The position numbers and the translations under genes were made by a program. 64,000 bases of DNA from positions 62,001 to 126,000 of the forward strand of contig LXYH01000005.1 of NCBI GenBank assembly GCA_001650895.1, read 5' to 3'. Of the stretch, positions 4,689-19,339 are shown piece after piece; position 1 is the stretch's first letter; each line of letters starts with the position of its first letter. The notes beneath the pieces were generated by a model. That model had not been told where the DNA came from. It saw only the letters and a list, made by a program, of their open reading frames with translations, and searched no databases. Source of the stretch: Rhodobacteraceae bacterium EhC02 (lineage in GTDB: Bacteria > Pseudomonadota > Alphaproteobacteria > Rhodobacterales > Rhodobacteraceae).

Positions 4689-6056
4689 TCACGCCGGCCA
4701 GTCCGCCCCGGCGGCCCGCCCCAGCACCACCGCGCTCAGCAGCCCGTTGCCGGACAGATAGCCGCTGTCGGCCGTGCCCGACACGCCGCAGGCGGCACCG
4801 CCCGCCGCATGCAGGTTGGGAAATACCGTGCCGTCCTGATGGCGCACGCGGCCTGTGCCAGTCACATCAAGCCCGCCCTGCGTGTGAAACAGCGCCCCCG
4901 TCACGCGCACGGCGGCATAGGGGGGTGTCAGGGGCGGGGTGGCAAAGGTCCGGCCAAAGGCATCGGTGCCCCCCTGCGGGATATTGGCCAATGTGTCGGC
5001 CAGCGCATCGGCGGGCAGGCCCGTGACCGCGGCCAGCTCCGTGACGGTGTCGGCCGTCTTGATCGCGCCTTGTGCTTCGGCGGCCTGGAAATCGGCGAAT
5101 TGCCGGGCAATCCCCGCGATGCGGCTGTCGAAGACAGCCCAGGCCTGACCCTGCGGCTGGCCCATCACGGCGCGGGCGGCCTCGGAATAGCCCTGCGCCT
5201 CGTTCCAGAAGCGGTGGCCGTCAAGGTTCACCTGCACGCCGCCTTCGGTGATCACCGCCCAGGTGATCAGGATGCCATGCGGATGGGCGACATTTCCATG
5301 TCCCTGGTAGGCGCCCAGATGCCGGGTCCCTGCGCCAAGGGCCTGCCCCCACAGCACCGCCTCGCCCCGGTTGCCGTCATGCCCGAACCACAGCGCCTCG
5401 CTGATCGCGGGCATGTGTTCGGCCACCATTGTCCGGTTGCCGCCATAGCCGTTGCAGGCAAGGATCAACCGCGCACATCCGATGGTTTCGGCGCTGCCAT
5501 CGGGCAGGGTGACCGTCACGCCGGTGACCGTCCGGCCTGCGTGGTGCAGAACCGTCGCGCGGCGTTCGCAGATGATGTCGATCCCTTCCGCCTCGCAGGT
5601 CTGGCGCAGCCGGTCCACCAGTTCCGCGCCCGATCGCGTGGGCAGCCCGTGCATCCGGCGCCGCGAATGGCCGGGATAGTCGAAATCCGTCACCACCGAG
5701 AACGGCAGGCCGAACCGCCCCGCCAGCCAGTCGATCGCCGGACCCGACCCGTTGGCCAAAGCCGCGACCAGATCGGGGTCATTCTCGTCATGCGCCTTGC
5801 GCTGGATGTCGGCGGCAAAAAGCGCGGCATCATCGCCAATCCCTGCCGCCGCCTGAAACGATGTCCCCGCCGCGGGGATCAGGCCCGCCGACAGCGCGGT
5901 GGACCCGCGCGGCAGGGGATCGGCCTCGATCACCAGCACCTCTTGCCCGGCTTCCCGCGCGGCTAGCGCCGCCACCATGCCGCAGGCACCGGCCCCGATG
6001 ATCAGGGTCTGCACCTCAGGGTCGAAGCCACCTTCGGGGCTGGGTGCGATGGTCAT
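4689..6056 (-). CDS. FAD-dependent oxidoreductase of the fumarate reductase/succinate dehydrogenase flavoprotein type
   Basis: A 455-residue soluble flavoprotein. The N-terminus holds an FAD-binding Rossmann motif (IIGAGACGMVAALAA, about residues 20-34), a central catalytic region with RFWNEAQG, and the C-terminal FAD-binding segment with AAGGAACGVSG and SGNGLL. Members of this family reduce or dehydrogenate C-C bonds next to carboxyl or keto groups (fumarate, 3-ketosteroids, urocanate), so it could install or remove a double bond in a diacid. It is the last gene of a six-gene operon, three bases after the lyase gene. Exact substrate unknown. Confidence 0.8.
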   Translation of the reverse strand: MTIAPSPEGGFDPEVQTLIIGAGACGMVAALAAREAGQEVLVIEADPLPRGSTALSAGLIPAAGTSFQAAAGIGDDAALFAADIQRKAHDENDPDLVAALANGSGPAIDWLAGRFGLPFSVVTDFDYPGHSRRRMHGLPTRSGAELVDRLRQTCEAEGIDIICERRATVLHHAGRTVTGVTVTLPDGSAETIGCARLILACNGYGGNRTMVAEHMPAISEALWFGHDGNRGEAVLWGQALGAGTRHLGAYQGHGNVAHPHGILITWAVITEGGVQVNLDGHRFWNEAQGYSEAARAVMGQPQGQAWAVFDSRIAGIARQFADFQAAEAQGAIKTADTVTELAAVTGLPADALADTLANIPQGGTDAFGRTFATPPLTPPYAAVRVTGALFHTQGGLDVTGTGRVRHQDGTVFPNLHAAGGAACGVSGTADSGYLSGNGLLSAVVLGRAAGADWPA

Positions 6057-6059
6057 GGT

Positions 6060-6929
6060 TCAACCCTTGTCCTGCCCGTCGAAACGCTGACCAAGGGCCA
6101 GCATCTCGGGTGTGCCGATGCAGGCGTTCAGCCCGTCGAAATCGAACATCCGGTCCGCAAAGGGCGTATTTGACCCGTTGGCGCGCAGGCTCGCGTAGTA
6201 GTCCTGCGCGGTGCGCGCCAGCGCCCGCACGATTCCGCCTGGAAAGATCACGATGTCGAAGCCGATGGACTGCAGATCCGCGGCCGAGGTGATCGGCGTA
6301 TGCCCACCCTCGACCATGTTCGCCAGCAGCGGCACCCGGCCCTTGAAGGTCTGCGCGATGCGCGCCAGCTGTTCGCCCGAACGCGGTGCTTCGATGAAGA
6401 GCACATCGGCCCCGGCAGCCACATAGGCCTCGGCCCGGTCCATGGCGGCGTCGAACCCTTCGACCGCGATGGCATCGGTGCGCGCGATGATCAACGTGGC
6501 GTCATGCGCGCGCGCATCCGCCATGGCGGCGATCTTGCCGGCCATTTCAGCGGCCGAGATCAGGGACTTGTCGGCCAGATGGCCGCAGCGCTTCGGGTAT
6601 GTCTGATCCTCGACCTGCAAGGCCGAGGCCCCGGCACGTTCATAGACCCGCATGGTCCGCTGCGCGTTCAGCGCATTGCCAAAGCCCGTATCGGCGTCGA
6701 TGATCACCGGCAGGGCCGTCCGGTCCCGGATCAGCGCCATCGTATCTGCCATTTCCGACACTGAGGTCAGGCCGATATCGGGCCGCCCCAGCCGCGTATA
6801 GGCGACAGCGGCACCCGACAGATACAGCGCCTCGAAACCGGCCTGTTCGGCCAGCGTGGCGGTCAGCCCGTCATAGACGCCGGGGGCGATCAGGATTTCG
6901 GGGGCGGTCAGCCGCGCGCGCAGGCTCAT
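6060..6929 (-). CDS. Isocitrate lyase/PEP mutase superfamily C-C lyase (methylisocitrate/dimethylmalate lyase-like)
   Basis: A 289-residue TIM-barrel enzyme of the ICL/PEPM superfamily. The Mg-binding DADTG is at residues 78-82, and KRCGH at 113-117 supplies the catalytic Cys115 that marks true lyases and is absent from PEP mutases. Characterised relatives cleave 2-methylisocitrate, 2,3-dimethylmalate or similar branched hydroxy-diacids to pyruvate (or glyoxylate) and a second acid. The start overlaps the stop of the isochorismatase-fold gene. With the LeuC/LeuD-like pair across the divergent promoter it would complete a hydratase-plus-lyase module; that pairing is inference. Confidence 0.85.
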   Translation of the reverse strand: MSLRARLTAPEILIAPGVYDGLTATLAEQAGFEALYLSGAAVAYTRLGRPDIGLTSVSEMADTMALIRDRTALPVIIDADTGFGNALNAQRTMRVYERAGASALQVEDQTYPKRCGHLADKSLISAAEMAGKIAAMADARAHDATLIIARTDAIAVEGFDAAMDRAEAYVAAGADVLFIEAPRSGEQLARIAQTFKGRVPLLANMVEGGHTPITSAADLQSIGFDIVIFPGGIVRALARTAQDYYASLRANGSNTPFADRMFDFDGLNACIGTPEMLALGQRFDGQDKG

Positions 6930-7546
6930 GCCGCGTCCTCCAGCAGTGCGATGGTCTCGGCGCAGGTCATCACATGGGTGACCGTGCCCAGCGAAATCAG
7001 CGTGGCGTCATGCACCTCGGGCTTGAAGGCGGCGCAGCCATCCGACAGCATGATCGTCTCGATATTGCGCAGATGCGCGTCGCGCAGGGTGCTGGCCACC
7101 CCGCCATTGGTGACGATCCCGCCGACGATCAGCGTATCAATCCCCAAAGCGCGCAGGATATATTCCAGCCGGGTTTGGTAGAAGGCGGAATAGGCCACCT
7201 TTTCAATGGTGTAATCCGCAGGGGCCAGCGCATCCACCAGACTGTGGCCAAAACCGCCGGGGGCAAAGTCGCCCTTGGTCAGGAAGGGGCGCAGTTGTTT
7301 CAGATGCGGCGCGATCAGCGGCTCGCCCCCCGGTCCGGGGACCAGCGTGAACTGCGCCGACACATAGGTGCCGCCCTTGGCGCGCAGTGCGTCGCGCACC
7401 GGGGCCACGCAGGCGGGCAGGGCCTTGATCGCATCCGATCCTTGCCCCGCGCGACCGTAGGCCCCCTCGGGATGCAGAAAGTCGTTTTGCAGGTCGATGG
7501 TCAGAAGGGCCGTGCGTTTCGGGTCAATGGTGGTCAATGCGCCCAT
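6926..7546 (-). CDS. Isochorismatase-fold hydrolase lacking the nucleophilic cysteine
   Basis: A 206-residue member of the isochorismatase/cysteine-hydrolase family (N-carbamoylsarcosine amidase, nicotinamidase, maleamate amidase relatives). The catalytic Asp18 (LLTIDLQNDF) and Lys116 (IEKVAYSAF) are present. The expected third residue is not: where amidases read TNVC, this protein has T146-N-G-G149-V, so Gly replaces the nucleophilic Cys. True isochorismatases such as EntB and PhzD also have Gly there and hydrolyse vinyl ethers with Asp and Lys only. The protein is therefore either not an amidase or works differently. It sits three bases after hyuA and overlaps the lyase gene. Confidence 0.82.
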   Translation of the reverse strand: MGALTTIDPKRTALLTIDLQNDFLHPEGAYGRAGQGSDAIKALPACVAPVRDALRAKGGTYVSAQFTLVPGPGGEPLIAPHLKQLRPFLTKGDFAPGGFGHSLVDALAPADYTIEKVAYSAFYQTRLEYILRALGIDTLIVGGIVTNGGVASTLRDAHLRNIETIMLSDGCAAFKPEVHDATLISLGTVTHVMTCAETIALLEDAA

Positions 7547-7549
7547 GGC

Positions 7550-9628
7550 TCAAGCCTCCTGCCGTGTGATGATGGTGTTGCCATAGGTATCAACCGTGCC
7601 GGTGAGGCCCGGTTCGATCAACACCGTTGTGTCGGGCTGTTCCAGAATGGCGGGGCCGTGAATCACCGCGCCCACCGGTAGGTCCAGCCGGTTGTAGATG
7701 GCGGTGTCATGCCACTGATCCCCGAAATGCACGGCACGCGTGCCCTTGCGCGCCTGCTCTGCCGTGCCGGTCCCGCGCGGCGCCAGGGTGGCAAGGTCGA
7801 ACTTCGGTCGCCGCCCTGTCACTGCCGAGCGCAGGTTCATCACGCGCCGTGCGCCCTTGGGCAGCAACCGGCCATAGGTTGCCTTGTAGGCCGCATCGAA
7901 CGCCTCGGCGATCTGGGCGCGGGTGGGCGGCACCACGCTACCTTCCGTGATGGTCACGGGCAGCGGCACGGCGACGGTATGGGTCTGCCCGACATAGGCC
8001 ATGTCCAGTTCGAACCTGGTCTCGCGCGCCTCGAACCGGGTCTGCGCCGCGTCCAGCATGGCCAGGCCCTGTTCCATGTGGGTCTGCATGAAACCGGCCA
8101 GCGCGGCCTCGTCCAGGCCGTCCACCATGGCGTTGATCGTCTGCACGAAATCCTGACGCATATCGGCGATCACGCAGCCCATGGCCGAGGTCACACCCGG
8201 ATAGCGCGGTACAATCGCGCGGGCCAGACCCACATCCGCCAGCATCGCGCCGGAATGCAGCGCGCCGCCGCCGCCGAAGGGCATGAAGGCAAACCGCTTG
8301 GGATCAAACCCGCGTTCGATGCTGACCAGACGGATCGCCCCGGCCATGCGGCTGTTGGCGACGCGAAGGATCGCTTCGGCGGCGGCAAGCGTGTCCAGCC
8401 CCAATGGCGCGCCGACATGTTCGTCAATCGCGCGCGCCGCCGCTTCGACATCCAGCCGTGTCAGCTTGCCGCCGATGGGGTTGTCCGGGTCGATCCGGCC
8501 CAGCACCACATTGGCATCCGTCACAGTGGGGCGCGTATTGCCAAGGCCGTAAGCCACCGGGCCTGGGTTCGATCCGGCACTTTCCGGCCCGATCATCAGC
8601 AACCCGCCCTTGTCGACCCAGGCGATCGAGCCACCGCCCGCGCCGATCGTCGTGATCTCGATCATCGGGGATCGCACGACCATCCCGAAATCGATCGAGG
8701 TCTGGGGCGACAGCATCGACTGCCCGCCCGCGATCAGCGAGACGTCGAAACTGGTCCCGCCCATATCGCCGGTGATGACATCGGGAAAGCCTGCGGTCTG
8801 CGCGATATAAGCCGCCGCGATGACGCCAGCCGCTGGCCCCGACAGGGCCGTGCGCACCGGCAGACGGCAGGCGGTATCCACCGCCATCACCCCGCCATTC
8901 GATTGCACGATCATGAACTCGCCCCCGAACCCGCCTGCCTTCAGCGCGGTTTCCAGACGATCCAGGTAGCCCGATACCTCAGGTTGCAGATACGCATTCA
9001 GCGCCGTGGTCGAAAACCGCTCGAACTCGCGGATCTCCGGCAGGATCTCGGAGGAGGCCGAGACATGCGGGTTCGGCCAGATCTCGCGGATCGCCGCCAC
9101 CGCCGCCGCCTCGTTGGCAGGGTTGGCATAGGCATTGGCAAACATCACCGCGACAGCGGCGCAGCCCTGATCCAGAAGGGTTTGCGCCGCATCCCGCACC
9201 GCGTCCAGATCGACGGGCGTGCGGATCCTGCCATCTGCCAGCGTGCGTTCCGGCACCTCGAGGCGCAGGTCGCGCGGCACCACGGGCGTGAAATCCCCGC
9301 GCAGCCCCCATGTCCGGGGCCGGTCGCGGCGGCGCATTTCCAGCACGTCGCGCAGCCCTTCGGTGGTGATCACGCCGATCTTGGCGCCCTTGCGTTCCAG
9401 CAAGGCATTGGTGCCCGCCGTGGTGCCATGCACGACGACGGCCACGGTGGACAGGTCCGACACCTGCCGCCCGATCCCGTCAAGGAAACCGCCCGACTGG
9501 TCGGGGCGGGTGGTCGGCACCTTGGCGACGGTGGCGGTGCCTGCGGCCTCGTCCAGCACGAAGACGTCCGTGAATGTGCCGCCCACATCGACGCCGATCA
9601 TGCGGCCTGCGATTGTTGCCTCGCTCAT
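7550..9628 (-). CDS. hyuA: Hydantoinase/oxoprolinase family protein, subunit A (ATP-binding)
   Basis: A 692-residue HyuA-type subunit with the actin-like ATPase fold. The phosphate loop GVDVGGTFTDVFVLDE lies near residue 12, GDMGGTSFDVSLI near 290 and the GAGGGSIAWVD segment near 330. Together with HyuB it forms an ATP-dependent amidohydrolase that opens cyclic amides such as 5-oxoproline, N-methylhydantoin or acetophenone-like substrates after carboxylation. The start at 9628 overlaps the hyuB stop (ATGA); the open frame runs six codons further. Substrate cannot be read from sequence, but the neighbours point to a lactam or imide giving a dicarboxylate. Confidence 0.92.
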   Translation of the reverse strand: MSEATIAGRMIGVDVGGTFTDVFVLDEAAGTATVAKVPTTRPDQSGGFLDGIGRQVSDLSTVAVVVHGTTAGTNALLERKGAKIGVITTEGLRDVLEMRRRDRPRTWGLRGDFTPVVPRDLRLEVPERTLADGRIRTPVDLDAVRDAAQTLLDQGCAAVAVMFANAYANPANEAAAVAAIREIWPNPHVSASSEILPEIREFERFSTTALNAYLQPEVSGYLDRLETALKAGGFGGEFMIVQSNGGVMAVDTACRLPVRTALSGPAAGVIAAAYIAQTAGFPDVITGDMGGTSFDVSLIAGGQSMLSPQTSIDFGMVVRSPMIEITTIGAGGGSIAWVDKGGLLMIGPESAGSNPGPVAYGLGNTRPTVTDANVVLGRIDPDNPIGGKLTRLDVEAAARAIDEHVGAPLGLDTLAAAEAILRVANSRMAGAIRLVSIERGFDPKRFAFMPFGGGGALHSGAMLADVGLARAIVPRYPGVTSAMGCVIADMRQDFVQTINAMVDGLDEAALAGFMQTHMEQGLAMLDAAQTRFEARETRFELDMAYVGQTHTVAVPLPVTITEGSVVPPTRAQIAEAFDAAYKATYGRLLPKGARRVMNLRSAVTGRRPKFDLATLAPRGTGTAEQARKGTRAVHFGDQWHDTAIYNRLDLPVGAVIHGPAILEQPDTTVLIEPGLTGTVDTYGNTIITRQEA

Positions 9629-11328
9629 GCCTGCGCCCCTTTCCATGCGTCGCCATAGGCCTTGTCGGCCTCTTCGGCGCTGATCAGTCCCAGCGCCACG
9701 TCATGCGCAACGGCCTTGGGGTCACGATCCGCCGCCTTGCCATAACCGCCGCCACCGGGAGTTTCCAACCGCACGGCCTGTCCCTGGGTCAGCTTGATCC
9801 CGCGCATTTTCGAGGCCAGCGGCGGGTGATGCCACCCATCTGCCTGCTCATAGGAAAAGACGTTCAACGCCGCCTCGCCACCACCAGCGGCCCCCTTGGG
9901 CGCAAAGCGCCCACGTTCGCCGAACAGGAACGCCTCGGCGCCGTTCTCCTCCAGCACCTCGATCTCGTAGACGGCACCCAGCCCGCCGCGATGCGCGCCA
10001 GCACCCGCACTGTCCGGGCGCAGCGCCCATTTGCGGAACATCACCGGATAGGCGGCTTCAAGGATCTCCATCGGTGGGATCGTCGCGGTGGAAATCGGTG
10101 CATTGCCATGGTTCAACCCGTCGCCTTCGGGTGATCCGCCATGCCCGCCGCCGTAAAAGCTGAACATCACCCAAGGCTGGCCATTCTTGCGCTTGCCCGC
10201 AATCGACAGCGCGTTGATCGTGCCATAGGCATTGGCCACCACGCGGTCAGGCGCGGCCTGACCGGCGGCGGCAAAGATCACGTCGATCATCCGCAGGATG
10301 GTTTCGGTATAGCCCCCCACAGGCGCGGGGAATTCGGCGGCCAGCAGCGATCCTTCCGGGATACGCACATCAATGGGCCGCATCACACCCGCATTGGCGG
10401 GCAGGGCCGGGAAGATATGCTTGATCGCCACATAGGCTGTCGCCACGGCGGTCGGCAGCGCGATATTCACCGGACCCGCACAACGGGGCGCTGTCCCTGC
10501 AAAATCCAGCACCATCCGGTCGCCCGCAATCTCCAGCGCGACCTTGATCGGCAGGGCCACGTCGGTGATACCGTCGTTGTCCAGGTAATCCACTGCCTCC
10601 CAACGCCCGTCGGGCAGGGCGGAAAGCTCGGCGCGCATCAGCGCCTCGGCCCGGTGGCCCAGCGCATCAAGTGCCGCGCGCACGGTGTCCGCGCCGTATT
10701 CGTCCAGCAGCTCATCCATCCGCCGCACGCCCAGATCAAGCGCGCCCAACTGCCCGTTCAGATCGCCCATGGCAGATTGCGGCAGGCGGGTGTTGCGCAT
10801 CAGGATGTCGATGATGTCGGTATTCACCTCACCGCCTCGCGCCAGACGCACGGGCGGCAGCACAAACGCCTCCTGAAACGCATCGGTCGCGGCGGGGTTG
10901 TAGTTGCCCGGAACCGCACCGCCCACATCATGCCAATGCCCTACAGACGCCAGATAGCAGAACAACTGCCCATCCCGGAAATAAGGGCGCACCAGACGCA
11001 TGTCCGACAGATGGGTGCCGCCCAGATGCGCATCGTTGAAGATGTAGATGTCGCCGTCGCGGATCTCTCCATGCTCGGCCGCCTTGTCGATCACCGCCTT
11101 CACCGCGAATGACATGACGCCCACGAAGATTGGCAGACCCGACTTGCCCTGCACCAGCGTGTCGCCGCTGACCGCGTGATAAAGGCCGTGCGAGGCATCA
11201 TGTGCCTCGGCGATGATCGGGTTGAAGGCGGCGCGGAACAGGGTCGCGTCCATCTCGTCGGCGATCTGTTCCATCCGGCCTGCCAGGACGGCCAGGGTGA
11301 TCGGGTCGATATCTGCGGTCTGGGTCAT
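9625..11328 (-). CDS. hyuB: Hydantoinase B/oxoprolinase family protein, subunit B
   Basis: A 567-residue HyuB-type subunit, the partner of HyuA. Family landmarks: IDPITLAVLAGRMEQIADEM at the N-terminus, FIFNDAHLGGTHLSDM-type metal/substrate region near residue 95, and the C-terminal GGGGYG turn. The start at 11328 (MTQTADI) overlaps the stop of the upstream tautomerase gene by four bases; the longer open frame to 11457 lies inside that gene and was rejected. Every gene junction in this operon has an overlap of four bases or a gap of three, so it is one transcript with coupled translation. Confidence 0.92.
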   Translation of the reverse strand: MTQTADIDPITLAVLAGRMEQIADEMDATLFRAAFNPIIAEAHDASHGLYHAVSGDTLVQGKSGLPIFVGVMSFAVKAVIDKAAEHGEIRDGDIYIFNDAHLGGTHLSDMRLVRPYFRDGQLFCYLASVGHWHDVGGAVPGNYNPAATDAFQEAFVLPPVRLARGGEVNTDIIDILMRNTRLPQSAMGDLNGQLGALDLGVRRMDELLDEYGADTVRAALDALGHRAEALMRAELSALPDGRWEAVDYLDNDGITDVALPIKVALEIAGDRMVLDFAGTAPRCAGPVNIALPTAVATAYVAIKHIFPALPANAGVMRPIDVRIPEGSLLAAEFPAPVGGYTETILRMIDVIFAAAGQAAPDRVVANAYGTINALSIAGKRKNGQPWVMFSFYGGGHGGSPEGDGLNHGNAPISTATIPPMEILEAAYPVMFRKWALRPDSAGAGAHRGGLGAVYEIEVLEENGAEAFLFGERGRFAPKGAAGGGEAALNVFSYEQADGWHHPPLASKMRGIKLTQGQAVRLETPGGGGYGKAADRDPKAVAHDVALGLISAEEADKAYGDAWKGAQA

Positions 11329-11900
11329 GCGTTGGGTGTTCCTGCGGATTTGACTTCGGCGATGTCGTTCCAGACATCCTGACGGGTGATCTTGCCCGCC
11401 GTGACCTCGAACCGGTCGATGAAGCGGATGCCCTCGAACGCCGTGCCATCGGGCCATTCGCCGTAAAGCGTGCCGCGCGAATAGACGACGGCATGACCAT
11501 CGCCCTGCAGGGCCTCGAACCCGTCATAGGTTTTCTTGACGAAACGATAGCGCGGTTTCGACCATGCGATCAGCTCTTCCAGCGTGGTCAGGCCGGATGC
11601 GCCGGGGAAGTTCATCACGAACCCCGCCCCCAGCATGGCGCGGGCGCGGTCCAGATCGCGCGCCTCCATCGCCGCCAGATAGTCGCGCACAAGTGCACAA
11701 GGATCGGGCAGGGCGGGCGCACCGCTGCGATGGGTGCCGCCGCGCATGTAATGGGCGCGCGGCATCTCGTGCAGAATCACGGTGATCGCGTCGGGTGCGG
11801 CTGGAACGACAAGCTGCACCGCATCGGTCAAAGCCTTGCCAAGACGCGTTTTCGCATCATTGTCATAGCCCTCAAGAACATGCGCCTCGATAATCGGCAT
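11325..11900 (-). CDS. Tautomerase-SnoaL (NTF2-like) fusion protein
   Basis: A 191-residue protein in two parts. Residues 1-60 resemble a 4-oxalocrotonate tautomerase monomer: the initiator Met is followed by the catalytic Pro2 (MPIIEAHVLEGY), and the rest has the usual helix and second strand (ITVILHEM). Residues about 65-185 are an NTF2/SnoaL-like alpha+beta barrel (YLAAMEARDLDRARAML, then FEGIRFIDRFEV and TRQDVWND). Tautomerases shift enol/keto bonds; SnoaL-like domains are isomerases, cyclases or binding pockets. It is the first gene of the operon, with a strong GGAGG site upstream. Its role is probably isomerisation of an unsaturated intermediate (inference). Confidence 0.8.
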   Translation of the reverse strand: MPIIEAHVLEGYDNDAKTRLGKALTDAVQLVVPAAPDAITVILHEMPRAHYMRGGTHRSGAPALPDPCALVRDYLAAMEARDLDRARAMLGAGFVMNFPGASGLTTLEELIAWSKPRYRFVKKTYDGFEALQGDGHAVVYSRGTLYGEWPDGTAFEGIRFIDRFEVTAGKITRQDVWNDIAEVKSAGTPNA

Positions 11901-11919
11901 AGCGTCCGTCCTCCTGAAA

Positions 11920-11943
11920 ATCTGTATCTTTGGTAATACAGAT
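11920..11943. promoter_or_regulatory. Operator-like dyad in the divergent intergenic region (hyu operon side)
   Basis: Perfect 8-base arms ATCTGTAT and ATACAGAT separated by eight bases, 20 bases upstream of the tautomerase start. A related GATA-N4-TATC element follows at 11942-11953. GntR/HutC regulators bind dyads of this size, and the gntR gene lies on the other side of the same region, so autoregulation and control of the minus-strand operon are plausible. Confidence 0.55.
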
Positions 11944-12005
11944 AGTGGTATCTGGAAAGCTCAAATATTTGCGCTCTGAAGTGACGGATTACTTGCTTTT
12001 CGAAA

Positions 12006-12021
12006 AACCGTTGATACGGTT
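12006..12021. promoter_or_regulatory. Second dyad in the divergent region (gntR side)
   Basis: AACCGT-TGAT-ACGGTT, a perfect 6-base inverted repeat with four-base spacer, about 45 bases upstream of the proposed gntR start. It is different in sequence from the dyad at 11920-11943, so a second regulator or a separate promoter element is possible. Confidence 0.4.
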
Positions 12022-12065
12022 GAGTGCGAATCCGGCCCGTTTGGGCGGTGGTTTGGGGGATTGGT

Positions 12066-12875
12066 TTGGACACGCAGGGCAGAGCAGGTCTTCCGGAAGG
12101 TGGCAAGGCGCGCAGGGTCTATCTGCTGCTGCGCGATGACATCTCGAACGGTACCTATGCCCCCGGCGTCAGCCTGCCGGGCGAGCAGCGGCTGGCCGAA
12201 GTGCATGCTGTCTCGCGTGTTACGATCCGCCGCGCGCTTGAGGCGCTGTGCGCCGATGGGTTGATCGAAAAGCGCGTCGGCAGCGGCAGTGTCGTGCGCG
12301 CCCCCGATGGCGCGGCAGCCCCTCTGGCGGCCGATTTCACCACCCTGATCCCGCAGCTTGTGGCCATGGGTCAGGCCACCACGGCGCGGCTTTTGTCCTT
12401 TTCCTACGGGCCTGCCCCCGAGGTGGTGGCCAAGGCCATGGCCCTGCTCGATGGGGCGCGGGTGCAGACCGCGGTCCGCGTGCGCCTTGTCGACGGGCGG
12501 CCGTTTTCGCATCTGACCACCTATGTGCCCGAGGCCATCGCCGCCAATTACACCGAGGCCGATCTTGCGACGACACCTCTGTTCCGCCTGCTGGAACGTT
12601 CCGGCGTGCAGGTCGATGCGGCGCATCAGTCGGTGACGGCCACCCTGGCATCCCCCGATGTGGCCGAGGCGCTGGGCGTCTCGGTCGGTTCTGCCCTGCT
12701 GTCTCTGCGCCGTGTCGTGCGGGACGTGAACGGGCAGGGGGTCGAATACCTGTCTGCCCTTTATCGCGCGGATGCCTTCCGCCTGGAAATGACCCTGAAC
12801 AGGGTCGGCCAGGGGGCGTCGCGCCATTGGGAACCCGTGATCGGCGATACCGCCAGTCGGGAGGCGGCGGAATGA
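12066..12875 (+). CDS. GntR family (HutC/UTRA type) transcriptional regulator
   Basis: About 269 residues from a TTG start at 12066, which has GGGGGA five bases upstream; a GTG at 12024 in frame is the alternative. Residues 15-80 form the winged helix of GntR proteins (ISNGTYAPGVSLPGEQRLAE, VSRVTIRRALEAL, IEKRVGSGSVV). The C-terminal part is a UTRA effector-binding domain related to chorismate lyase, typical of HutC and other catabolic regulators that bind small carboxylates. It is divergent from the hyu operon and its stop overlaps the start of the leuC-like gene, so it probably controls both operons in response to a pathway intermediate. Confidence 0.9.
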   Translation: MDTQGRAGLPEGGKARRVYLLLRDDISNGTYAPGVSLPGEQRLAEVHAVSRVTIRRALEALCADGLIEKRVGSGSVVRAPDGAAAPLAADFTTLIPQLVAMGQATTARLLSFSYGPAPEVVAKAMALLDGARVQTAVRVRLVDGRPFSHLTTYVPEAIAANYTEADLATTPLFRLLERSGVQVDAAHQSVTATLASPDVAEALGVSVGSALLSLRRVVRDVNGQGVEYLSALYRADAFRLEMTLNRVGQGASRHWEPVIGDTASREAAE

Positions 12876-14278
12876 ACGCGCCGGCCCGCACATTGTTCTA
12901 CAAGCTTTGGGAGGCCCATCAGGTGCTGCGGCGCGAGGATGGCGCCTGCCTGCTGTGGGTGGATCGGCACCTTGTGCACGAAGGGTCCCACCATGCGTTC
13001 GCCAAGCTGGCCGAGCGGGGCCTGCCTGTGGCAGAGCCTGCGCTGACCATCGGCGTGGTCGATCATTATGCGCCCACGCGCAACCGCGACAGGATCGCAG
13101 ACCCGGATATCGCCCGGATGATCCGCACGCTGGAAGAGAACACCGCCCGCCACGGCATCCGCTGTTTCGGGATGCGCGACCCGCGTCAGGGTATCGTGCA
13201 TGTCATGGGGCCCGAGCAGGGGCTGACCCTGCCGGGACTGCTGATCAATTGCGGCGACAGCCATACCTCCACTCACGGAGCCTTCGGGGCGCTGGCCTTC
13301 GGGATCGGCGCAACCGAAGTGGCGCATGTCCTGGCGACGCAGACGATCTGGCAGAAGCGTCCGAAAACCATGCGGATCACCGTGACCGGGAAATTGGGGC
13401 CGTCGGTCACGGCCAAGGACCTGGCATTGTCCTGGATCGCCGAGCTGGGCGCGGATGGTGCGCGTGGCCATGCCATCGAATATGCCGGGCCGGTGGTCAG
13501 GGCGCTGTCGATGGAGGGGCGCATGACGCTGTGCAACCTGTCCATCGAGGGCGGCGCGCGCTGCGGCATGGTCGCCCCGGACGATGTGACCTTCGCCTAT
13601 ATCAAGGGCCGTCCTTTCGCGCCTGCGGGCACGGACTGGGACATGGCCGTGGCGGACTGGCGGGCGCTGGTTTCGGATGAGGGCGCTGTATTCGACCGCG
13701 AGGTCACGATCGATGGCGCGGCGATTGCCCCCACCGTCACCTGGGGCACCAGCCCGGAAGAGGCCTTGCCGATCACCGCAAGCCTGCCCGATCCCGACCG
13801 GCTGGATGGCGCGCGGGCTGATCAGGCCCGCGCGGCGATGGACTACATGGGGTTGACCCCCGGCCAGCGGATCGAGGGCACGCCTGTCGATCAGGTCTTC
13901 ATCGGGTCCTGCACCAATGGCCGGATCGAGGATCTGCGCATGGCCGCCGCCGTTCTGGCAGGCCGCAAGGCCAAGGTGCCGGGCCTCGTCTCGCCCGGTT
14001 CGGCCCTGATCAAGGCGCAGGCGGAACAGGAAGGGCTGGACCGTATCTTCACGCAAGCCGGTCTGGATTGGGTCGATGCGGGCTGTTCCATGTGCGTCGG
14101 CATGAATGGCGATCTGGTGGCACCCGGCAAGCGTTGCGCCTCATCGACCAACCGCAATTTCAAGGGCCGTCAGGGGCGCGGCGCACGCACCCACCTGATG
14201 AGCCCCGCCATGGTGGCAGCCGCCGCCGTCACCGGCACGCTCAGCGATGTGCGCCCCCTGCTGGAAGGGCGCGTATGA
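12872..14278 (+). CDS. leuC: 3-isopropylmalate dehydratase-type large subunit (LeuC-like)
   Basis: A 468-residue aconitase-superfamily large subunit. Landmarks: CGDSHTSTHGAFG at 127-139, IGSCTNGR near 345 and CSMC at 405-408, which give the three Cys ligands of the [4Fe-4S] cluster; the SSTNRNFKGRQGRG loop follows. LeuC/LeuD isomerise 2- and 3-isopropylmalate in leucine synthesis, but close homologues hydrate citraconate or 2,3-dimethylmaleate in catabolism. Here the pair is coupled to a GntR regulator and a TRAP transporter, with no leuA or leuB, so a catabolic hydro-lyase role is more likely. The ATG overlaps the gntR stop. Confidence 0.9.
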   Translation: MNAPARTLFYKLWEAHQVLRREDGACLLWVDRHLVHEGSHHAFAKLAERGLPVAEPALTIGVVDHYAPTRNRDRIADPDIARMIRTLEENTARHGIRCFGMRDPRQGIVHVMGPEQGLTLPGLLINCGDSHTSTHGAFGALAFGIGATEVAHVLATQTIWQKRPKTMRITVTGKLGPSVTAKDLALSWIAELGADGARGHAIEYAGPVVRALSMEGRMTLCNLSIEGGARCGMVAPDDVTFAYIKGRPFAPAGTDWDMAVADWRALVSDEGAVFDREVTIDGAAIAPTVTWGTSPEEALPITASLPDPDRLDGARADQARAAMDYMGLTPGQRIEGTPVDQVFIGSCTNGRIEDLRMAAAVLAGRKAKVPGLVSPGSALIKAQAEQEGLDRIFTQAGLDWVDAGCSMCVGMNGDLVAPGKRCASSTNRNFKGRQGRGARTHLMSPAMVAAAAVTGTLSDVRPLLEGRV

Positions 14279-14892
14279 TCATGGCGGGTTGGAACATCAT
14301 CGACGGTCGCGCCGTGGCCCTGCCGCAGGACAATATCGACACCGATCAGCTGATCCCGGCGCGGTTCATGTCGGTGCCGCGCAAGGATGGCTATGGCCCT
14401 TACCTGCTGCACGATCTGCGCTTTGACGCCGAGGGCGCGCCGCGCCCCGACATGGCCCTGAACCGCCACCCCGAGGCCAGCATCCTCGTCACCCGCCGCA
14501 ACTTCGGCTCCGGCTCCTCGCGCGAGGCGGCGGTCTATGCGCTGGTGGATTTCGGCATCAAGGCCGTGGTCGCACCCAGTTTCGGCGATATCTTCGCATC
14601 GAACGCGGTCAACAACGGCCTGTTGCCCGCGCGCCTGCCCGAGGACCTGATCGAGGCGCTGATCGCCCGGCTGGGTGATGGCGATGCCGCGATGACCGTC
14701 GATCTGAACGATTGCGTGATCCGCATCGGGAACGAGGTCATGCCCTTCGATCTGGATCCGGTCTGGCGTTTGAAGCTGATCAACGGCTGGGACGATATCG
14801 ACATGACCGCCAGCCATGGCCGCGAGATCGCGGCCTTCCGCGCCAATCGTGTGCAACATGCGCCCTACGCCATGCTGCCGCACGAGACTTGA
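14275..14892 (+). CDS. leuD: 3-isopropylmalate dehydratase-type small subunit (LeuD-like)
   Basis: A 205-residue swivel subunit that completes the LeuC-like enzyme. It has the IDTDQLIPARF opening, the substrate-binding NFGSGSSREAA loop (Escherichia LeuD has Cys and His at two of these positions) and the APSFGDIFASNAVNNGLLP stretch. Normal length for LeuD. The ATG overlaps the leuC stop (ATGA), giving stoichiometric translation. As with the large subunit, the reaction is inferred to be hydration/dehydration of a branched unsaturated diacid. Confidence 0.9.
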   Translation: MIMAGWNIIDGRAVALPQDNIDTDQLIPARFMSVPRKDGYGPYLLHDLRFDAEGAPRPDMALNRHPEASILVTRRNFGSGSSREAAVYALVDFGIKAVVAPSFGDIFASNAVNNGLLPARLPEDLIEALIARLGDGDAAMTVDLNDCVIRIGNEVMPFDLDPVWRLKLINGWDDIDMTASHGREIAAFRANRVQHAPYAMLPHET

Positions 14893-14897
14893 AAGAC

Positions 14898-14978
14898 CCG
14901 CGCGCGCCTGATGGGGCGCGCGGCACCAATCGGGTGACCCTGCAAGGGCGCCTTCAACAGGGCGGGGGCCTGCCCCCG
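14898..14978 (+). other. Two intercistronic hairpins between leuD and dctP
   Basis: The first stem pairs CCGCGCGC (14898-14905) with GCGCGCGG (14916-14923), extended by CC/GG around a TGAT loop. The second pairs CGGGGGC (14963-14969) with GCCCCCG (14972-14978), immediately before the dctP ribosome site. Neither has a U-tract, so they look like mRNA processing or stabilising elements that let the binding-protein gene be expressed differently from leuCD. Confidence 0.5.
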
Positions 14979-14995
14979 AAAAAGGAGAGAGAACG

Positions 14996-16009
14996 ATGAA
15001 AATGACCCTCATCGGCGGTATTGTCGCCGGTTCCACGATGTTCGGCGCGGTCGCCACGGCACAGGAAACCCTGACCGCCGTGCATGCCTTCCCCGGCACG
15101 CTGATCTATACCCAGTCCTTCCTGCAGTTCGTCGACAAGGTGAACAAGGCCGGCGAAGGTGTCGTGCAGATCGAAGTGCGCGGCGGCCCCGAGGCGATCG
15201 GCATGTTCCAGCAGCCCGATGCCGTGCGCGACGGGATCGTGGACATGGTCTACACCCCCGGCAGCTTCTACGGTGGCGCGCTGCCCGAGAAGGATGCGCT
15301 GGTCGCATCGAACCTGACCGCGATCGAAGCCCGTGAAAACGGCGGCATCGCCCTGATCGACGAGATCCACCAGGCGAAGATGGGCGTGAAATACCTGGGC
15401 TGGTTCGATAGCGGCGTCAGCTATAACCTGTGGATGAAGAACGAGCCCAAGCTGGATGCGAACGGCAATCTGGACGTGTCGGGCATCAAGCTGCGCGGCA
15501 ACGCGGTCTACAACGCCTTCTTCACCGAATACCTTGGCGCGCAGGTGATCGACCTGCCCACCACCGAAGTCTATGCCGGGCTTGAGCGTGGCGTGGTCGA
15601 TGCGACCGGCTGGACCCAGATCGGCCTGATCGACCTCAAGTGGAACGAGTTCCTGAACTACCGGGTCGAGCCCAACTTCTTCTCGACCGACCTTGGTGTG
15701 ATCGTGAACCTGGAAAAGTGGAACAGCCTGTCGGACGAAGCCAAGAAGATCCTGCAGGATACCGCGATCGAGCATGAGAAAGAATCGGTCGAGGCGCTGC
15801 GCCTCAAGCGCGATCAGGATTTCGCAGCCCTTGAAGCCGGCGGCATGAAAGTGGTCGAGCTGCAGGGTGAGGCCCGCGCCAACTACCTGGCCGCAGCCCG
15901 CGAAAAGACCTGGGGCCGCATGAAGGGCCTGATGGCCGAAAGCCCGATGGGTGACGGCAACTACGACACGCTGATCGGCCTGTTCTACAACGCCGACCTG
16001 GACAAGTAA
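14996..16009 (+). CDS. dctP: TRAP transporter substrate-binding protein, DctP type
   Basis: A 337-residue periplasmic binding protein. Residues 1-22 are a Sec signal peptide (ending VATAQE). The family pattern follows: TYTPGSFYGG-type loop, the conserved LRGNAVYNAFFTEYLGAQVIDLPTTEVYAGLERGVVDAT region containing the carboxylate-binding Arg, and the long C-terminal helix. TRAP binding proteins capture carboxylic acids and related small anions. The ribosome site AAGGAGAG is strong. It stands first of a complete DctPQM set, whose ligand is presumably the substrate of the catabolic island. Confidence 0.92.
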   Translation: MKMTLIGGIVAGSTMFGAVATAQETLTAVHAFPGTLIYTQSFLQFVDKVNKAGEGVVQIEVRGGPEAIGMFQQPDAVRDGIVDMVYTPGSFYGGALPEKDALVASNLTAIEARENGGIALIDEIHQAKMGVKYLGWFDSGVSYNLWMKNEPKLDANGNLDVSGIKLRGNAVYNAFFTEYLGAQVIDLPTTEVYAGLERGVVDATGWTQIGLIDLKWNEFLNYRVEPNFFSTDLGVIVNLEKWNSLSDEAKKILQDTAIEHEKESVEALRLKRDQDFAALEAGGMKVVELQGEARANYLAAAREKTWGRMKGLMAESPMGDGNYDTLIGLFYNADLDK

Positions 16010-16017
16010 GTCCTTGT

Positions 16018-16043
16018 GGCGCGGCCTCTGACGAGGTCGCGCC
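16018..16043 (+). other. Stable hairpin between dctP and dctQ
   Basis: Eleven consecutive pairs, GGCGCGGCCTC (16018-16028) against GAGGTCGCGCC (16033-16043), one of them a G-U pair, closed by a TGAC loop. No T-run follows. Hairpins after binding-protein genes commonly protect the upstream mRNA from 3' exonucleases, raising binding protein over permease. Confidence 0.6.
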
Positions 16044-16100
16044 ATACACATCATGGCGCGGGCGCGACACCGTGCCCGCATCACATCACCAGAGGCAGAC

Positions 16101-16607
16101 ATGCAGCAGTTGACCCGTCTCTATACGCTGGTTCTTTACGGCATGGCCGTTCTTGCCGGGGCCATGCTGGTCTGGGTGATGATCGCGGTCATCATGTCTG
16201 TCGGCATGCGGAACCTTGGCATGCAGCCCTGGGCGTGGCTGTTCACATCGACCGAATACGCGATGCTCTACATCACCATGCTGGGCGCGCCCTGGCTGGT
16301 ACGCGAAAAGGGCCATGTGCATATCGAACTGGTCACCGCCGCCTTGCCACCCGCGCTGCGCCGCCTGGTCAGCCGGGGCGTGGCCCTGGCCTGTGTCGTG
16401 GTCAGCCTGATCCTGGCCTGGAAGGGGTTCGAGCTGTTCCAGACCAACATCGCGCGCAACGACTATGACGTGCGCGCCTATTATTTTCCGCGCTGGATCC
16501 TGACCGTGTCATTCCCGATCTGTTTCGGTCTGATGGCGATCGAGTTTTCGCGCTTTGTCTTCGGGACCGAGCTGATGCATTCCGGTGAAGCAGGGATACA
16601 CGAATAA
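16101..16607 (+). CDS. dctQ: TRAP transporter small permease, DctQ type
   Basis: A 168-residue inner-membrane protein with four predicted membrane segments (about residues 8-30, 45-65, 87-108 and 130-150), the DctQ topology. The stretch GAPWLVREKGHVHIELV after the second segment is the typical DctQ motif. The start at 16101 has AGAGGCAG upstream; the open frame begins 16 codons earlier in sequence without family match. The TAA stop overlaps the dctM ATG by one base. Confidence 0.9.
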   Translation: MQQLTRLYTLVLYGMAVLAGAMLVWVMIAVIMSVGMRNLGMQPWAWLFTSTEYAMLYITMLGAPWLVREKGHVHIELVTAALPPALRRLVSRGVALACVVVSLILAWKGFELFQTNIARNDYDVRAYYFPRWILTVSFPICFGLMAIEFSRFVFGTELMHSGEAGIHE

Positions 16608-17911: not shown

Positions 17912-17922
17912 GGACGCGCAGG

Positions 17923-18393
17923 CTAGCCTGACTTGCCGGGCGGTTGCATCGGTGCGCGGCTCTGATCGTTGCCGGCCTGGGTGGTCTTGCGCATCAGGGT
18001 CATGAATTGCGCACGCTCATCCGCCGAAAGGCCGATCAGGATGTCATCCTGAAAGCCGCGCACGATCGGGCGTGTCCTGTCCAGCAGGGCGCTGCCCGCA
18101 TCGGTCAGGCGCAAGGAACGGGCACGGCGGTCCTGCCGGCTGACGGTGCGGCTGATCAGGCCCTTGCCCTCCAGCCGGTCCACCACCCCGCCGATCGTGA
18201 CCCTGTCATAGGCGATCAGCCCGGCCAGCGTGGCCTGGTCGATCTCGGGGTTCGCATCAAGCGCGCAAAGGGCAGCGAATTGAACCGGCGTCAGGTCGAC
18301 CCCGGACGATTTCATCCGGTCCGCAAAGACCGATACGGAAATCTGATGCAGCCGTCGCACCAGGTGCCCCGCCATGTCATGTAGTTCCAGCAT
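17923..18393 (-). CDS. MarR family transcriptional regulator
   Basis: A 156-residue winged-helix regulator. The core is residues 35-100: LTPVQFAALCALDANPEIDQATLAGLIAYDR then VDRLEGKGLISRTVSRQDRRARSLRLT, the MarR recognition helix and wing. MarR proteins often sense aromatic or other acids and repress divergent genes. It is divergent from the FAA-hydrolase gene across 250 bases, which it may control together with itself. Start chosen at the ATG at 18393. Confidence 0.88.
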   Translation of the reverse strand: MLELHDMAGHLVRRLHQISVSVFADRMKSSGVDLTPVQFAALCALDANPEIDQATLAGLIAYDRVTIGGVVDRLEGKGLISRTVSRQDRRARSLRLTDAGSALLDRTRPIVRGFQDDILIGLSADERAQFMTLMRKTTQAGNDQSRAPMQPPGKSG

Positions 18394-18643
18394 TCCATTC
18401 CCATCGTCGCGCCATGCAGCAGCAGATTACCGCCGCGGGATGGAATTTGACAAGCATGCGGATGGTTAGCATGCGACCTTCCGGTCGGCCCTGTCGGCAG
18501 ACCCCTCGGACGCGCCGGAAAAGAGAGGTTTTTCCTGCCGGTTTTTGGACTTATAGATCACGATGCGGGGCAGGGCCGCACCCTGGTCCGCATCACGAGG
18601 TCCCATTGCAGGAGGCAATGGGCCAGCAAGAGGAGCCCCGCCG

Positions 18644-19339
18644 ATGAGCCATCTGTTCGATCTGCCCGCCATTCCCGAGATACCCGTAACGGGCGAGACC
18701 GCGACCTATCCGATCCGCCGCATTTTCTGCGTCGGGCGCAACTATGCGGCTCATGCAGCCGAAATGGGGATCGCGGTCGATCGCGAAAAGCCGTTCTATT
18801 TCACCAAGTCGCCGGCATCGGCCATCCTCAGCGGGGCGACCGCACCCTATCCGCCGGGCACTGACAATTATCACTACGAGATGGAACTGGCCGTGGCGAT
18901 TGGCGCACCGGCGTTCAAGGTGGCCGTCGAACAGGCGATGGATTGCGTCTATGGCTATTGCTGCGCATTGGACATGACACGCCGTGACCTGCAGCTGTCC
19001 GAACGCGCGCATCAGCGTCCCTGGGACCTTGGCAAGGATGTCGAAAACTCGGCCGTCTTCGCCCCCATGACCAAGGCCGCCGATTTTGGCGCCATCGCCG
19101 ATCAGCGCATTCATCTGTCCCTGAACGGAGAGATACGGCAGGACGCAACGCTGACCGAACTCGTCTGGTCGATCCCCGAGATCATCAGCCATCTGTCCGG
19201 CTTCTATCACCTGCAGCCCGGTGACCTGATCATGACGGGCACGCCCGCCGGTGTGGGGGCGGTTGTGCCGGGTGACGCGATCATCGGTGGGATCGACGGG
19301 CTGGCGCCGATCAGCCTGACCATCGGGGCCGCCGCCTGA
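18644..19339 (+). CDS. Fumarylacetoacetate hydrolase family protein (fumarylpyruvate hydrolase-like)
   Basis: A 231-residue single-domain FAH enzyme. IFCVGRNYAAHAAEMG opens the fold; metal ligands are expected in YEMELAVAIG (Glu pair) and in the DMTRRDLQ segment; KGWDLGK-like RPWDLGKDVENSAVFAP and the late LMTGTPAGVGAV turn complete it. The close match to NagK-type proteins suggests hydrolysis of a 2,4-diketo acid such as fumarylpyruvate, giving pyruvate plus a diacid; other FAH members are decarboxylases or hydratases. The start at 18644 has AGGAG upstream; the frame is open 27 codons further. It is divergent from marR. Confidence 0.85.
   Translation: MSHLFDLPAIPEIPVTGETATYPIRRIFCVGRNYAAHAAEMGIAVDREKPFYFTKSPASAILSGATAPYPPGTDNYHYEMELAVAIGAPAFKVAVEQAMDCVYGYCCALDMTRRDLQLSERAHQRPWDLGKDVENSAVFAPMTKAADFGAIADQRIHLSLNGEIRQDATLTELVWSIPEIISHLSGFYHLQPGDLIMTGTPAGVGAVVPGDAIIGGIDGLAPISLTIGAAA

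What the first reader, a model, noticed from the sequence alone, without database searches (positions are those of the whole stretch)
4689..19339. Catabolic island combining HyuAB, a KRCGH lyase, LeuCD-like hydro-lyase, tautomerase and a TRAP transporter
Seen: two divergent operons around a GntR regulator with four-base overlaps at nearly every junction. One carries an ATP-dependent cyclic-amide opener (HyuAB), an isocitrate-lyase-superfamily lyase with Cys115, and a fumarate-reductase-type flavoprotein; the other carries LeuC/LeuD-like subunits and DctPQM. Known: in nicotinate fermentation of Eubacterium barkeri, LeuCD-type dimethylmalate dehydratase plus ICL-type dimethylmalate lyase split a branched diacid. 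Inferred: a five-membered lactam or imide (for example an alkyl-maleimide such as tetrapyrrole breakdown products) is opened to a diacid, hydrated, and cleaved to pyruvate plus a short acid. I do not know a described pathway with exactly this set.
Basis: partly seen in the sequence, partly recalled or inferred. Interest (0 to 1): 0.78.

Follow-up and report, generated by a model that had tools for sequence, protein, structure and literature searches.

The report
Unnamed widespread ring-opening catabolic cluster
The window holds a bacterial gene set, shared by many alpha- and betaproteobacteria and known to me under no described function, that looks built to open a small nitrogen ring and cut the product into ordinary metabolites; its substrate is unknown, and cyclic imides such as chlorophyll and heme fragments are the best guess.

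Summary
The cluster is real and conserved as a unit. The divergent operons share a palindrome (11922-11941; 37 of 43 distinct regions with at most 2 mismatches, 2.4 expected). Leucine synthesis is unlikely: better-scoring leuCD lie elsewhere. MarR and FAH at 17923-19339 do not belong (0 of 40 loci at 45% identity).

New points: the isochorismatase-fold protein has Gly for the catalytic Cys in 90 of 90 distinct copies; the flavoprotein has Tyr for two fumarate-reductase Arg in 80 of 80; in one betaproteobacterial family an allantoinase/hydantoinase-type amidohydrolase takes the slot of HyuB-HyuA-isochorismatase (HyuAB in 0 of 11 loci). Best guess: C-substituted succinimides or maleimides, desaturated, opened, hydrolysed, hydrated, then cleaved to a 2-oxo acid plus a carboxylic acid. 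Substrate and step order are inferred.

The parts
4689..6056 (-). FAD-dependent oxidoreductase (FAD_binding_2); positions aligned with fumarate reductase Arg402 and Arg544 (numbers recalled) are Tyr290 and Tyr433, His253 and His391 kept; proposed alpha,beta-desaturase of the neutral ring
6060..6929 (-). ICL/PEP-mutase-superfamily C-C lyase, Cys115; NM[VI]EGG loop shared with petal death protein (a 2-alkylmalate lyase, recalled) and Arg235 shared with PrpB
6926..7546 (-). isochorismatase-fold protein; Asp18 and Lys116 kept, catalytic Cys position is Gly149
7550..9628 (-). HyuA, hydantoinase/oxoprolinase family A subunit
9625..11328 (-). HyuB, B subunit
11325..11900 (-). 4-OT-type tautomerase domain (Pro after Met1) fused to SnoaL-like domain; relative of PDB 9mua/9mup
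11922..11941 (.). palindrome CTGTATCTTTGGTAATACAG, probable GntR operator (binding not tested)
12024..12875 (+). GntR/UTRA (HutC-like) regulator, GTG start as listed; true start may lie downstream
12872..14278 (+). LeuC-like hydro-lyase large subunit, probable catabolic paralogue
14275..14892 (+). LeuD-like small subunit; SSREAAVYAL where the C23 copy has SSREHAPWAL
14996..16009 (+). TRAP solute-binding protein DctP; nearest solved relative 4mnc/4mni
16053..16607 (+). TRAP small permease DctQ (start possibly 16101); no NCBIfam match, assigned by position and by the annotated orthologue in L161
16607..17911 (+). TRAP large permease DctM

Best explanation
A catabolic module for a cyclic compound with a CO-NH-CO ring, most likely a C-substituted five-membered imide (succinimide/maleimide). 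Proposed steps: TRAP uptake; the flavoprotein desaturates the neutral ring (succinimide to maleimide); HyuAB opens the ring with ATP to a half-amide; the Cys-less isochorismatase-fold protein, by general-acid catalysis helped by the neighbouring carboxylate, releases ammonia to give a substituted maleate; LeuCD hydrates this to a substituted malate; the ICL-type lyase cuts it to a 2-oxo acid (pyruvate or glyoxylate) and a carboxylic acid. The tautomerase-SnoaL protein would move an exocyclic double bond into place. The GntR protein would control both operons through the palindrome at 11922-11941. Shown: the conserved gene set, the active-site states, the shared palindrome, the swap of HyuB-HyuA-isochorismatase for an amidohydrolase. 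Inferred: each reaction, their order, the substrate, the regulation.
For: Seven-gene core together in 37 of 53 full-length loci found through the lyase and in 30 of 40 loci found through the tautomerase. HyuA, HyuB and the isochorismatase-fold gene are present together in 43 of the 53; the isochorismatase-fold gene (50% identity or more) without HyuAB in 0 of 80. An amidohydrolase with complete metal motifs, nearest solved relatives allantoinase, hydantoinase, dihydropyrimidinase, sits in that slot: 11 of 299 genomes of one family; of 11 neighbourhoods, flavoprotein and lyase follow it in 10, LeuCD directly precedes it in 9, HyuA/HyuB/isochorismatase-fold found in 0. The flavoprotein has Tyr at both Arg positions (80 of 80), fitting a neutral ring. 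Gly for Cys in 90 of 90; breakdown of substituted maleic acid amides is helped by the own carboxyl group, more so with more substituents (passage in PMC8751315; its reference list names papers of Kirby and co-workers on this and on general-acid catalysis, not read), so a nucleophile could be dispensable. LeuD columns beside the Ser-Arg motif fixed differently from the C23 copy. Shared palindrome.
Against: No substrate, ligand or product evidence. No half-amidase of the isochorismatase-fold kind was found in the amidohydrolase loci, so the half-amide would have to hydrolyse by itself or with an unlinked enzyme. The nearest solved relatives of that amidohydrolase are named for ureides, not imides. 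A Gly-type isochorismatase fold is best known for vinyl ether hydrolysis (recalled). LeuC and LeuD pass the 3-isopropylmalate dehydratase cut-offs. L173, one of the 11 amidohydrolase loci, has no flavoprotein or lyase in the fetched stretch, and 10 of 53 lyase loci have no HyuAB. L134 has a distant isochorismatase-fold relative (38%, Ala at the Cys position) with a distant lyase (45%) and no HyuAB. Transporter classes vary (TRAP by model; Liv ABC and TctC named by eye).
Confidence: 0.4

Rival explanations
1. The ring is a cyclic ureide (a 5-substituted hydantoin or dihydropyrimidine): HyuAB or the amidohydrolase gives an N-carbamoyl acid, the flavoprotein oxidises it, and the LeuCD/lyase pair handles the carbon skeleton.
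For: Amidohydrolase nearest to allantoinase, hydantoinase, dihydropyrimidinase; HyuB nearest solved relative is annotated N-methylhydantoinase; clusters of Asp/Glu/hydantoin-racemase-like genes in 5 and 4 loci (one member tested with Pfam); L107 has a separate hydantoinase-like and racemase-like pair beside the cluster (by eye).
Against: No Cys carbamoylase: the isochorismatase-fold protein lacks its Cys, and none of that kind was found in the amidohydrolase loci. The racemase-family proteins of L067, L109 and L113 lack Cys at the positions I expect (by eye, motif recalled). A hydro-lyase of the aconitase family needs a diacid, which simple ureides do not give.
Confidence: 0.25
2. The ring is an unsaturated lactam (cyclic enamide): HyuAB opens it to an enamine acid and the Gly-type isochorismatase-fold protein hydrolyses the enamine by general acid, as isochorismatase does with a vinyl ether; a single amidohydrolase does both, as enamidase does in nicotinate fermentation (recalled).
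For: Coupling of HyuAB with the isochorismatase-fold gene, loss of Cys, one-for-three replacement by an amidohydrolase. HyuA scores 508 bits with caprolactamase alpha, a lactamase (under its cut-off).
Against: The replacing amidohydrolase is nearest to allantoinase/hydantoinase; no enamidase is named among the 60 rows shown of 77 PDB relatives. It is unclear how the keto acid would feed LeuCD.
Confidence: 0.15
3. An aryl lactam such as 2-oxindole-3-acetate is opened to an arylsuccinate, desaturated, hydrated and cleaved to an arylglyoxylate or glyoxylate.
For: HyuAB-type enzymes open oxindole-3-acetate in anaerobic indoleacetate degradation (recalled); the nearest solved DctP relative (4mnc) was solved with benzoylformate (recalled).
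Against: I recognised no aromatic-degradation genes by eye among the recurring neighbours listed, most of which were not run against family models; the flavoprotein lacks the Arg pair expected for a succinate-type substrate.
Confidence: 0.06
4. Housekeeping duplicates: LeuCD serves leucine synthesis and the lyase a methylcitrate cycle; neighbours are incidental.
For: LeuC and LeuD pass the family cut-offs; the lyase is the only match of its kind in the genome at E 1e-10.
Against: Better-scoring leuC (785 against 632 bits) and leuD (263 against 165) on contig C23; lyase below the PrpB cut-off (293 against 354); 18 LeuC and 13 LeuD columns fixed in cluster copies differ from the C23 copy; co-conservation over many genera.
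Confidence: 0.03

Closest known systems
Lower part of nicotinate fermentation in Eubacterium barkeri (dimethylmaleate hydratase plus dimethylmalate lyase; recalled)
   Same: LeuCD-type hydro-lyase next to an ICL-superfamily lyase that would split a substituted malate; in two variant loci tested (L072, L140) the small subunit passes the LeuD/DmdB model.
   Different: HyuAB plus Cys-less isochorismatase-fold protein, Tyr-type flavoprotein and tautomerase-SnoaL. The B12 mutase of that pathway was not searched for, and the E. barkeri sequences were not in hand.
HyuAB plus N-carbamoylsarcosine amidase route of N-methylhydantoin (creatinine) breakdown (recalled)
   Same: ATP-dependent ring opener paired with an isochorismatase-fold protein.
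   Different: The isochorismatase-fold partner lacks the Cys nucleophile; LeuCD, lyase and flavoprotein accompany it.
Cyclic imide metabolism (imidase plus half-amidase; recalled)
   Same: Two-step hydrolysis of a CO-NH-CO ring would be the same logic.
   Different: ATP-dependent opener, Cys-less second enzyme, and C-C cleavage instead of direct entry of succinate or fumarate.
Methylcitrate cycle (PrpD, AcnD/AcnB, PrpB)
   Same: Hydro-lyase plus ICL-type lyase; a cluster of MmgE/PrpD-family genes spans 12 loci (one member tested with Pfam).
   Different: Lyase below the PrpB cut-off and with the loop of petal death protein in place of NITEFG; methylcitrate synthase was not searched for.
PDB 9mua/9mup, 4OT-SnoaL from P. 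atlanticus
   Same: Same domain fusion, 56% identity in the structural alignment.
   Different: Only the entry titles were seen; no function or genome context known to me.

Membership tests
3-isopropylmalate dehydratase (LeuC/LeuD) | scores over TIGR00170 and TIGR00171 cut-offs | tested here: met
   LeuC 631.6 over 560.25; LeuD 165.4 over 116.25
3-isopropylmalate dehydratase (LeuC/LeuD) | is the leucine-biosynthesis copy of the genome | tested here: inconclusive
   indirect: better-scoring pair on C23 and HAPW changed to AAVY beside the Ser-Arg motif speak against it; no growth test
Methylisocitrate lyase (PrpB) | TIGR02317 cut-off 354.4 bits | tested here: not met
   292.9 bits
ICL/PEP mutase superfamily lyase | superfamily model and catalytic KRCGH Cys | tested here: met
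   PF13714 E 4.8e-43; Cys115 in 112 of 112 distinct copies
2,3-dimethylmalate lyase | cleaves dimethylmalate | not testable with these tools
   no assay; PDB 3fa3, named so, matches at E 1e-48, behind several methylisocitrate lyases
Isochorismatase-family cysteine hydrolase | Asp-Lys-Cys triad | tested here: not met
   Asp and Lys 90 of 90, Cys position Gly 90 of 90; other isochorismatase-fold genes in L072 and L141 keep Cys (by eye)
Fumarate reductase / flavocytochrome c flavoprotein | TIGR01813 cut-off and catalytic Arg402/Arg544 | tested here: not met
   226.3 under 285.45 bits; both Tyr in 80 of 80 (residue numbers recalled, alignment)
Caprolactamase CapAB | NCBIfam cut-offs | tested here: not met
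   508.1 and 307.8 bits against 1000 each
Hydantoinase/oxoprolinase HyuAB | Pfam Hydantoinase_A and Hydantoinase_B domains | tested here: met
   substrate not testable
4-oxalocrotonate tautomerase | N-terminal Pro; NCBIfam cut-off | tested here: inconclusive
   Pro in 55 of 55; best model 35.4 under 55 bits
Zinc cyclic amidohydrolase (displacing gene, L146) | HxH, Lys, His, His, Asp metal motifs (recalled) | tested here: met
   13 aligned sequences (L146 and L166 are the same gene)

The most novel reading that the evidence does not exclude
The cluster is a pathway for tetrapyrrole debris: succinimides and maleimides left when chlorophyll, heme and bilins are oxidised (hematinic acid, methyl-ethyl- and methyl-vinyl-maleimide and their dihydro forms). 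Hematinic acid imide would go to 2-methyl-3-carboxyethyl maleamate, whose amide hydrolysis is self-assisted, so that evolution could drop the catalytic Cys of the isochorismatase fold; LeuCD and the lyase would then give pyruvate and glutarate. A passage of PMC7318184 says that maleimides and hematinic acid were reported from senescent leaves and lake sediments; that study itself found hematinic acid but detected no maleimides.
Probability: 0.13. Interest if true: 0.85.

Novelty: new variant of a known kind. Interest (0 to 1): 0.56.

Why it matters
A seven-enzyme catabolic module present from marine Rhodobacteraceae to freshwater and soil Burkholderiales carries only generic gene names in the one annotated neighbourhood read, so a sizeable nutrient flow may be invisible. 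It gives named, testable targets: an amidase-like fold without a nucleophile, a flavoprotein without the usual Arg, and two unrelated ring openers for one slot. If the substrate is a tetrapyrrole fragment, it would address how the last ring pieces of chlorophyll and heme return to central metabolism.

Tried and rejected
Literature: 10 searches for this gene set, tautomerase-SnoaL, TRAP ligands, maleimide or imide breakdown and ICL-superfamily specificity. Searches found no paper; none of the titles and abstract starts listed in the others describes this cluster (one search listed 10 of 38). Passages of three papers were seen (PMC7318184, PMC8669743, PMC8751315); no paper was read whole. The library lacks most subscription papers, so this is weak evidence of absence.

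Leucine-synthesis and methylcitrate readings were tested and judged unlikely. FAH, MarR and TetR as parts: rejected (0 of 40 loci at 45% identity or more; loci are cut at about 20 kb or at contig ends, so genes further out would be missed). Cys-type amidase for the isochorismatase-fold protein: rejected by the active-site column.

Substrate inference from transporter class failed, as the class varies. A search for further genes common to the Rhodobacteraceae-type loci gave no accessory gene in more than 8 of 51 loci. The AtuA plus DUF4387 variant (L127, L133, L139) could not be interpreted. A tree of HyuB (98 rows, 91 typed) shows that LeuC-type and HacA/DmdA-type hydro-lyases were swapped (3 changes by parsimony, only 1 forced by well-supported branches). 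The fold search with the tautomerase-SnoaL model gave titles of two crystal structures but no function.

Column counts and the tree used only copies over identity and coverage thresholds (isochorismatase-fold 45%, flavoprotein 44%, lyase 55%, tautomerase 40%; HyuB 55%; LeuD 50%, LeuC 60%).

Full report
What is there. Two divergent operons meet at 11901-12023. Leftward: tautomerase-SnoaL, HyuB, HyuA, an isochorismatase-fold protein, an ICL/PEP-mutase-superfamily lyase and a flavoprotein. Rightward: GntR-UTRA regulator, LeuC- and LeuD-like subunits, DctP, DctQ, DctM.

It is a unit. The tautomerase query matched 55 of 295 genomes of the window's family at E 1e-10 (59 match rows, many to the SnoaL part only). 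I first fetched wide neighbourhoods for 40 of the 59 rows, one of them a second place in the own genome, and seven further or wider stretches later. In 30 of the 40 all seven core genes are present and in 24 all three TRAP genes; MarR, FAH and TetR of the window are in none at 45% identity or more. The ten misses include contigs that end early, variants with other hydro-lyases, and unrelated SnoaL proteins. Of these, 53 loci are at least 20 kb: lyase 53 (by construction), LeuC-like 49, LeuD-like 48, HyuA, HyuB and isochorismatase-fold 43 each, flavoprotein 39, all seven 37 (identity thresholds of 25 to 55%). Hosts named in the record titles include Sulfitobacter, Yoonia, Azospirillum, Methylobacterium, Bradyrhizobium, Rhizobium, Variovorax, Acidovorax, Limnohabitans and Achromobacter. 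Transporters change from lineage to lineage: TRAP, and by eye Liv-type ABC and TctC. On a Sulfitobacter plasmid the same twelve genes carry only generic names.

Regulation. A palindrome TGTAT-N8-ATACA lies about 20 bases before the tautomerase gene in 37 of 43 distinct divergent regions with at most two mismatches; mononucleotide shuffles give 2.4. Six of the 43 have three or four mismatches. The window has it at one place, 11922-11941. It is the probable GntR site; that GntR binds it is inferred.

Probably not leucine synthesis. The genome has a leuCD pair on contig C23 that scores higher with the leucine models and a third aconitase-family protein on C34 (taken for aconitase from its length and 25% match). 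Over 56 LeuD and 64 LeuC cluster copies of the same type, 13 and 18 columns are fixed (97% or more) and differ from the C23 pair, including HAPW to AAVY next to the Ser-Arg motif. In 25 of 91 HyuB loci that could be typed, the LeuC-like protein is of another kind (under 45% identity); two such pairs tested pass the HacA-family and LeuD/DmdB models.

Active sites. Lyase: Cys115 and an NM[VI]EGG loop in 112 of 112 distinct copies, a loop that matches petal death protein rather than PrpB, together with an Arg shared with PrpB; it is under the PrpB cut-off. Isochorismatase-fold protein: Asp18 and Lys116 kept, Gly in place of Cys in 90 of 90 distinct copies, seen against the Cys of 3kl2; isochorismatase-fold genes elsewhere in L072 and L141 keep the Cys, while a distant relative in L134 has Ala there (by eye). 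Flavoprotein: the Arg402 and Arg544 equivalents of Shewanella fumarate reductase are Tyr in 80 of 80, both His kept (numbering recalled). Tautomerase: Pro after Met in 55 of 55 copies aligned over the full length; in some loci only the SnoaL part matches (L070, L071).

The swap. In L146 the slot of HyuB-HyuA-isochorismatase holds one amidohydrolase. Close relatives (E 1e-70) were found in 1 of 398 sampled genomes of the phylum and in 11 of 299 of one betaproteobacterial family. Of the 11 neighbourhoods, 10 have flavoprotein and lyase after it (in L166 the lyase is 2.1 kb further on), 9 have LeuCD directly before it, one (L168) has LeuCD 3 kb away, one (L167) lies on a 6.8-kb contig with a TctC gene before it, L173 lacks flavoprotein and lyase in the fetched stretch, and HyuA, HyuB or the isochorismatase-fold gene was found in none. 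Its metal motifs are complete and its nearest solved relatives are allantoinase, hydantoinase and dihydropyrimidinase. I read this as non-orthologous displacement: the displaced trio does the work of a cyclic-amide hydrolase. Ten of the 53 lyase loci have no HyuAB; these include L146 and L129, with the amidohydrolase, and eight others that I could not explain.

Mechanism. A CO-NH-CO ring fits both openers. Among such rings an imide gives, after loss of ammonia, a 1,2-diacid that a LeuCD-type enzyme can hydrate and an ICL-type lyase can cut; ureides do not give this directly. A flavoprotein without the two Arg would suit the neutral ring rather than the free diacid. Half-amides of substituted maleates lose their amine with help from the neighbouring carboxyl group, faster with more substituents; [quoted passage not shown] An enzyme for that step would need a general acid, not a Cys. 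The same fact could explain why I found no isochorismatase-fold partner in the amidohydrolase operons. All this is inference.

Rivals and weak points. Ureides remain possible because of the kinship of the amidohydrolase; enamides because Gly-type isochorismatase folds act on vinyl ethers (recalled). No call gave direct evidence for a substrate. Some members lack parts, and L134 shows a distant isochorismatase-fold and lyase pair without HyuAB.

Novelty. Each enzyme family is known; the combination, its breadth, the Cys-less partner and the displacement are, as far as 10 searches of the held library show (listed under Tried and rejected), not described. I file it as a new variant of a known kind: a catabolic module resembling in logic the lower part of nicotinate fermentation.

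Noticed in passing
window 17923-18393 (-) and 18644-19339 (+): MarR regulator and FAH-family hydrolase beside the cluster but not conserved with it; FAH best model is a general fumarylacetoacetate hydrolase family, under its cut-off.
   Followed up: partly
G000:C16:220245-220766: A second tautomerase-SnoaL relative in the own genome (39% identity, one TGA counted inside the match), with no other query gene in the 20 kb around it (L073).
   Followed up: partly
L113:17277-18744, L109:12824-14397, L067:8549-9334: Asp/Glu/hydantoin-racemase-family genes next to the cluster; in the copies read, both positions where I recall racemase Cys residues lack Cys (by eye).
   Followed up: partly
L071:10011-10781, L126:15309-16103: Arylmalonate-decarboxylase/maleate-isomerase-like proteins with Cys at one of the two usual sites only (sites recalled, by eye).
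   Followed up: partly
L127, L133, L139: LeuCD-flavoprotein-lyase set with an AtuA-like gene upstream (and DUF4387 in L127 and L133) and no HyuAB on these short contigs; DUF4387 may belong to this chemistry.
   Followed up: no
L107:1291-4264: A second lyase relative (45%) beside what look by eye like a hydantoin racemase and a hydantoinase, next to the core cluster.
   Followed up: no
window 22740-24890 (-): Looks by eye like a secreted subtilisin-type protease with an autotransporter end; not tested.
   Followed up: no
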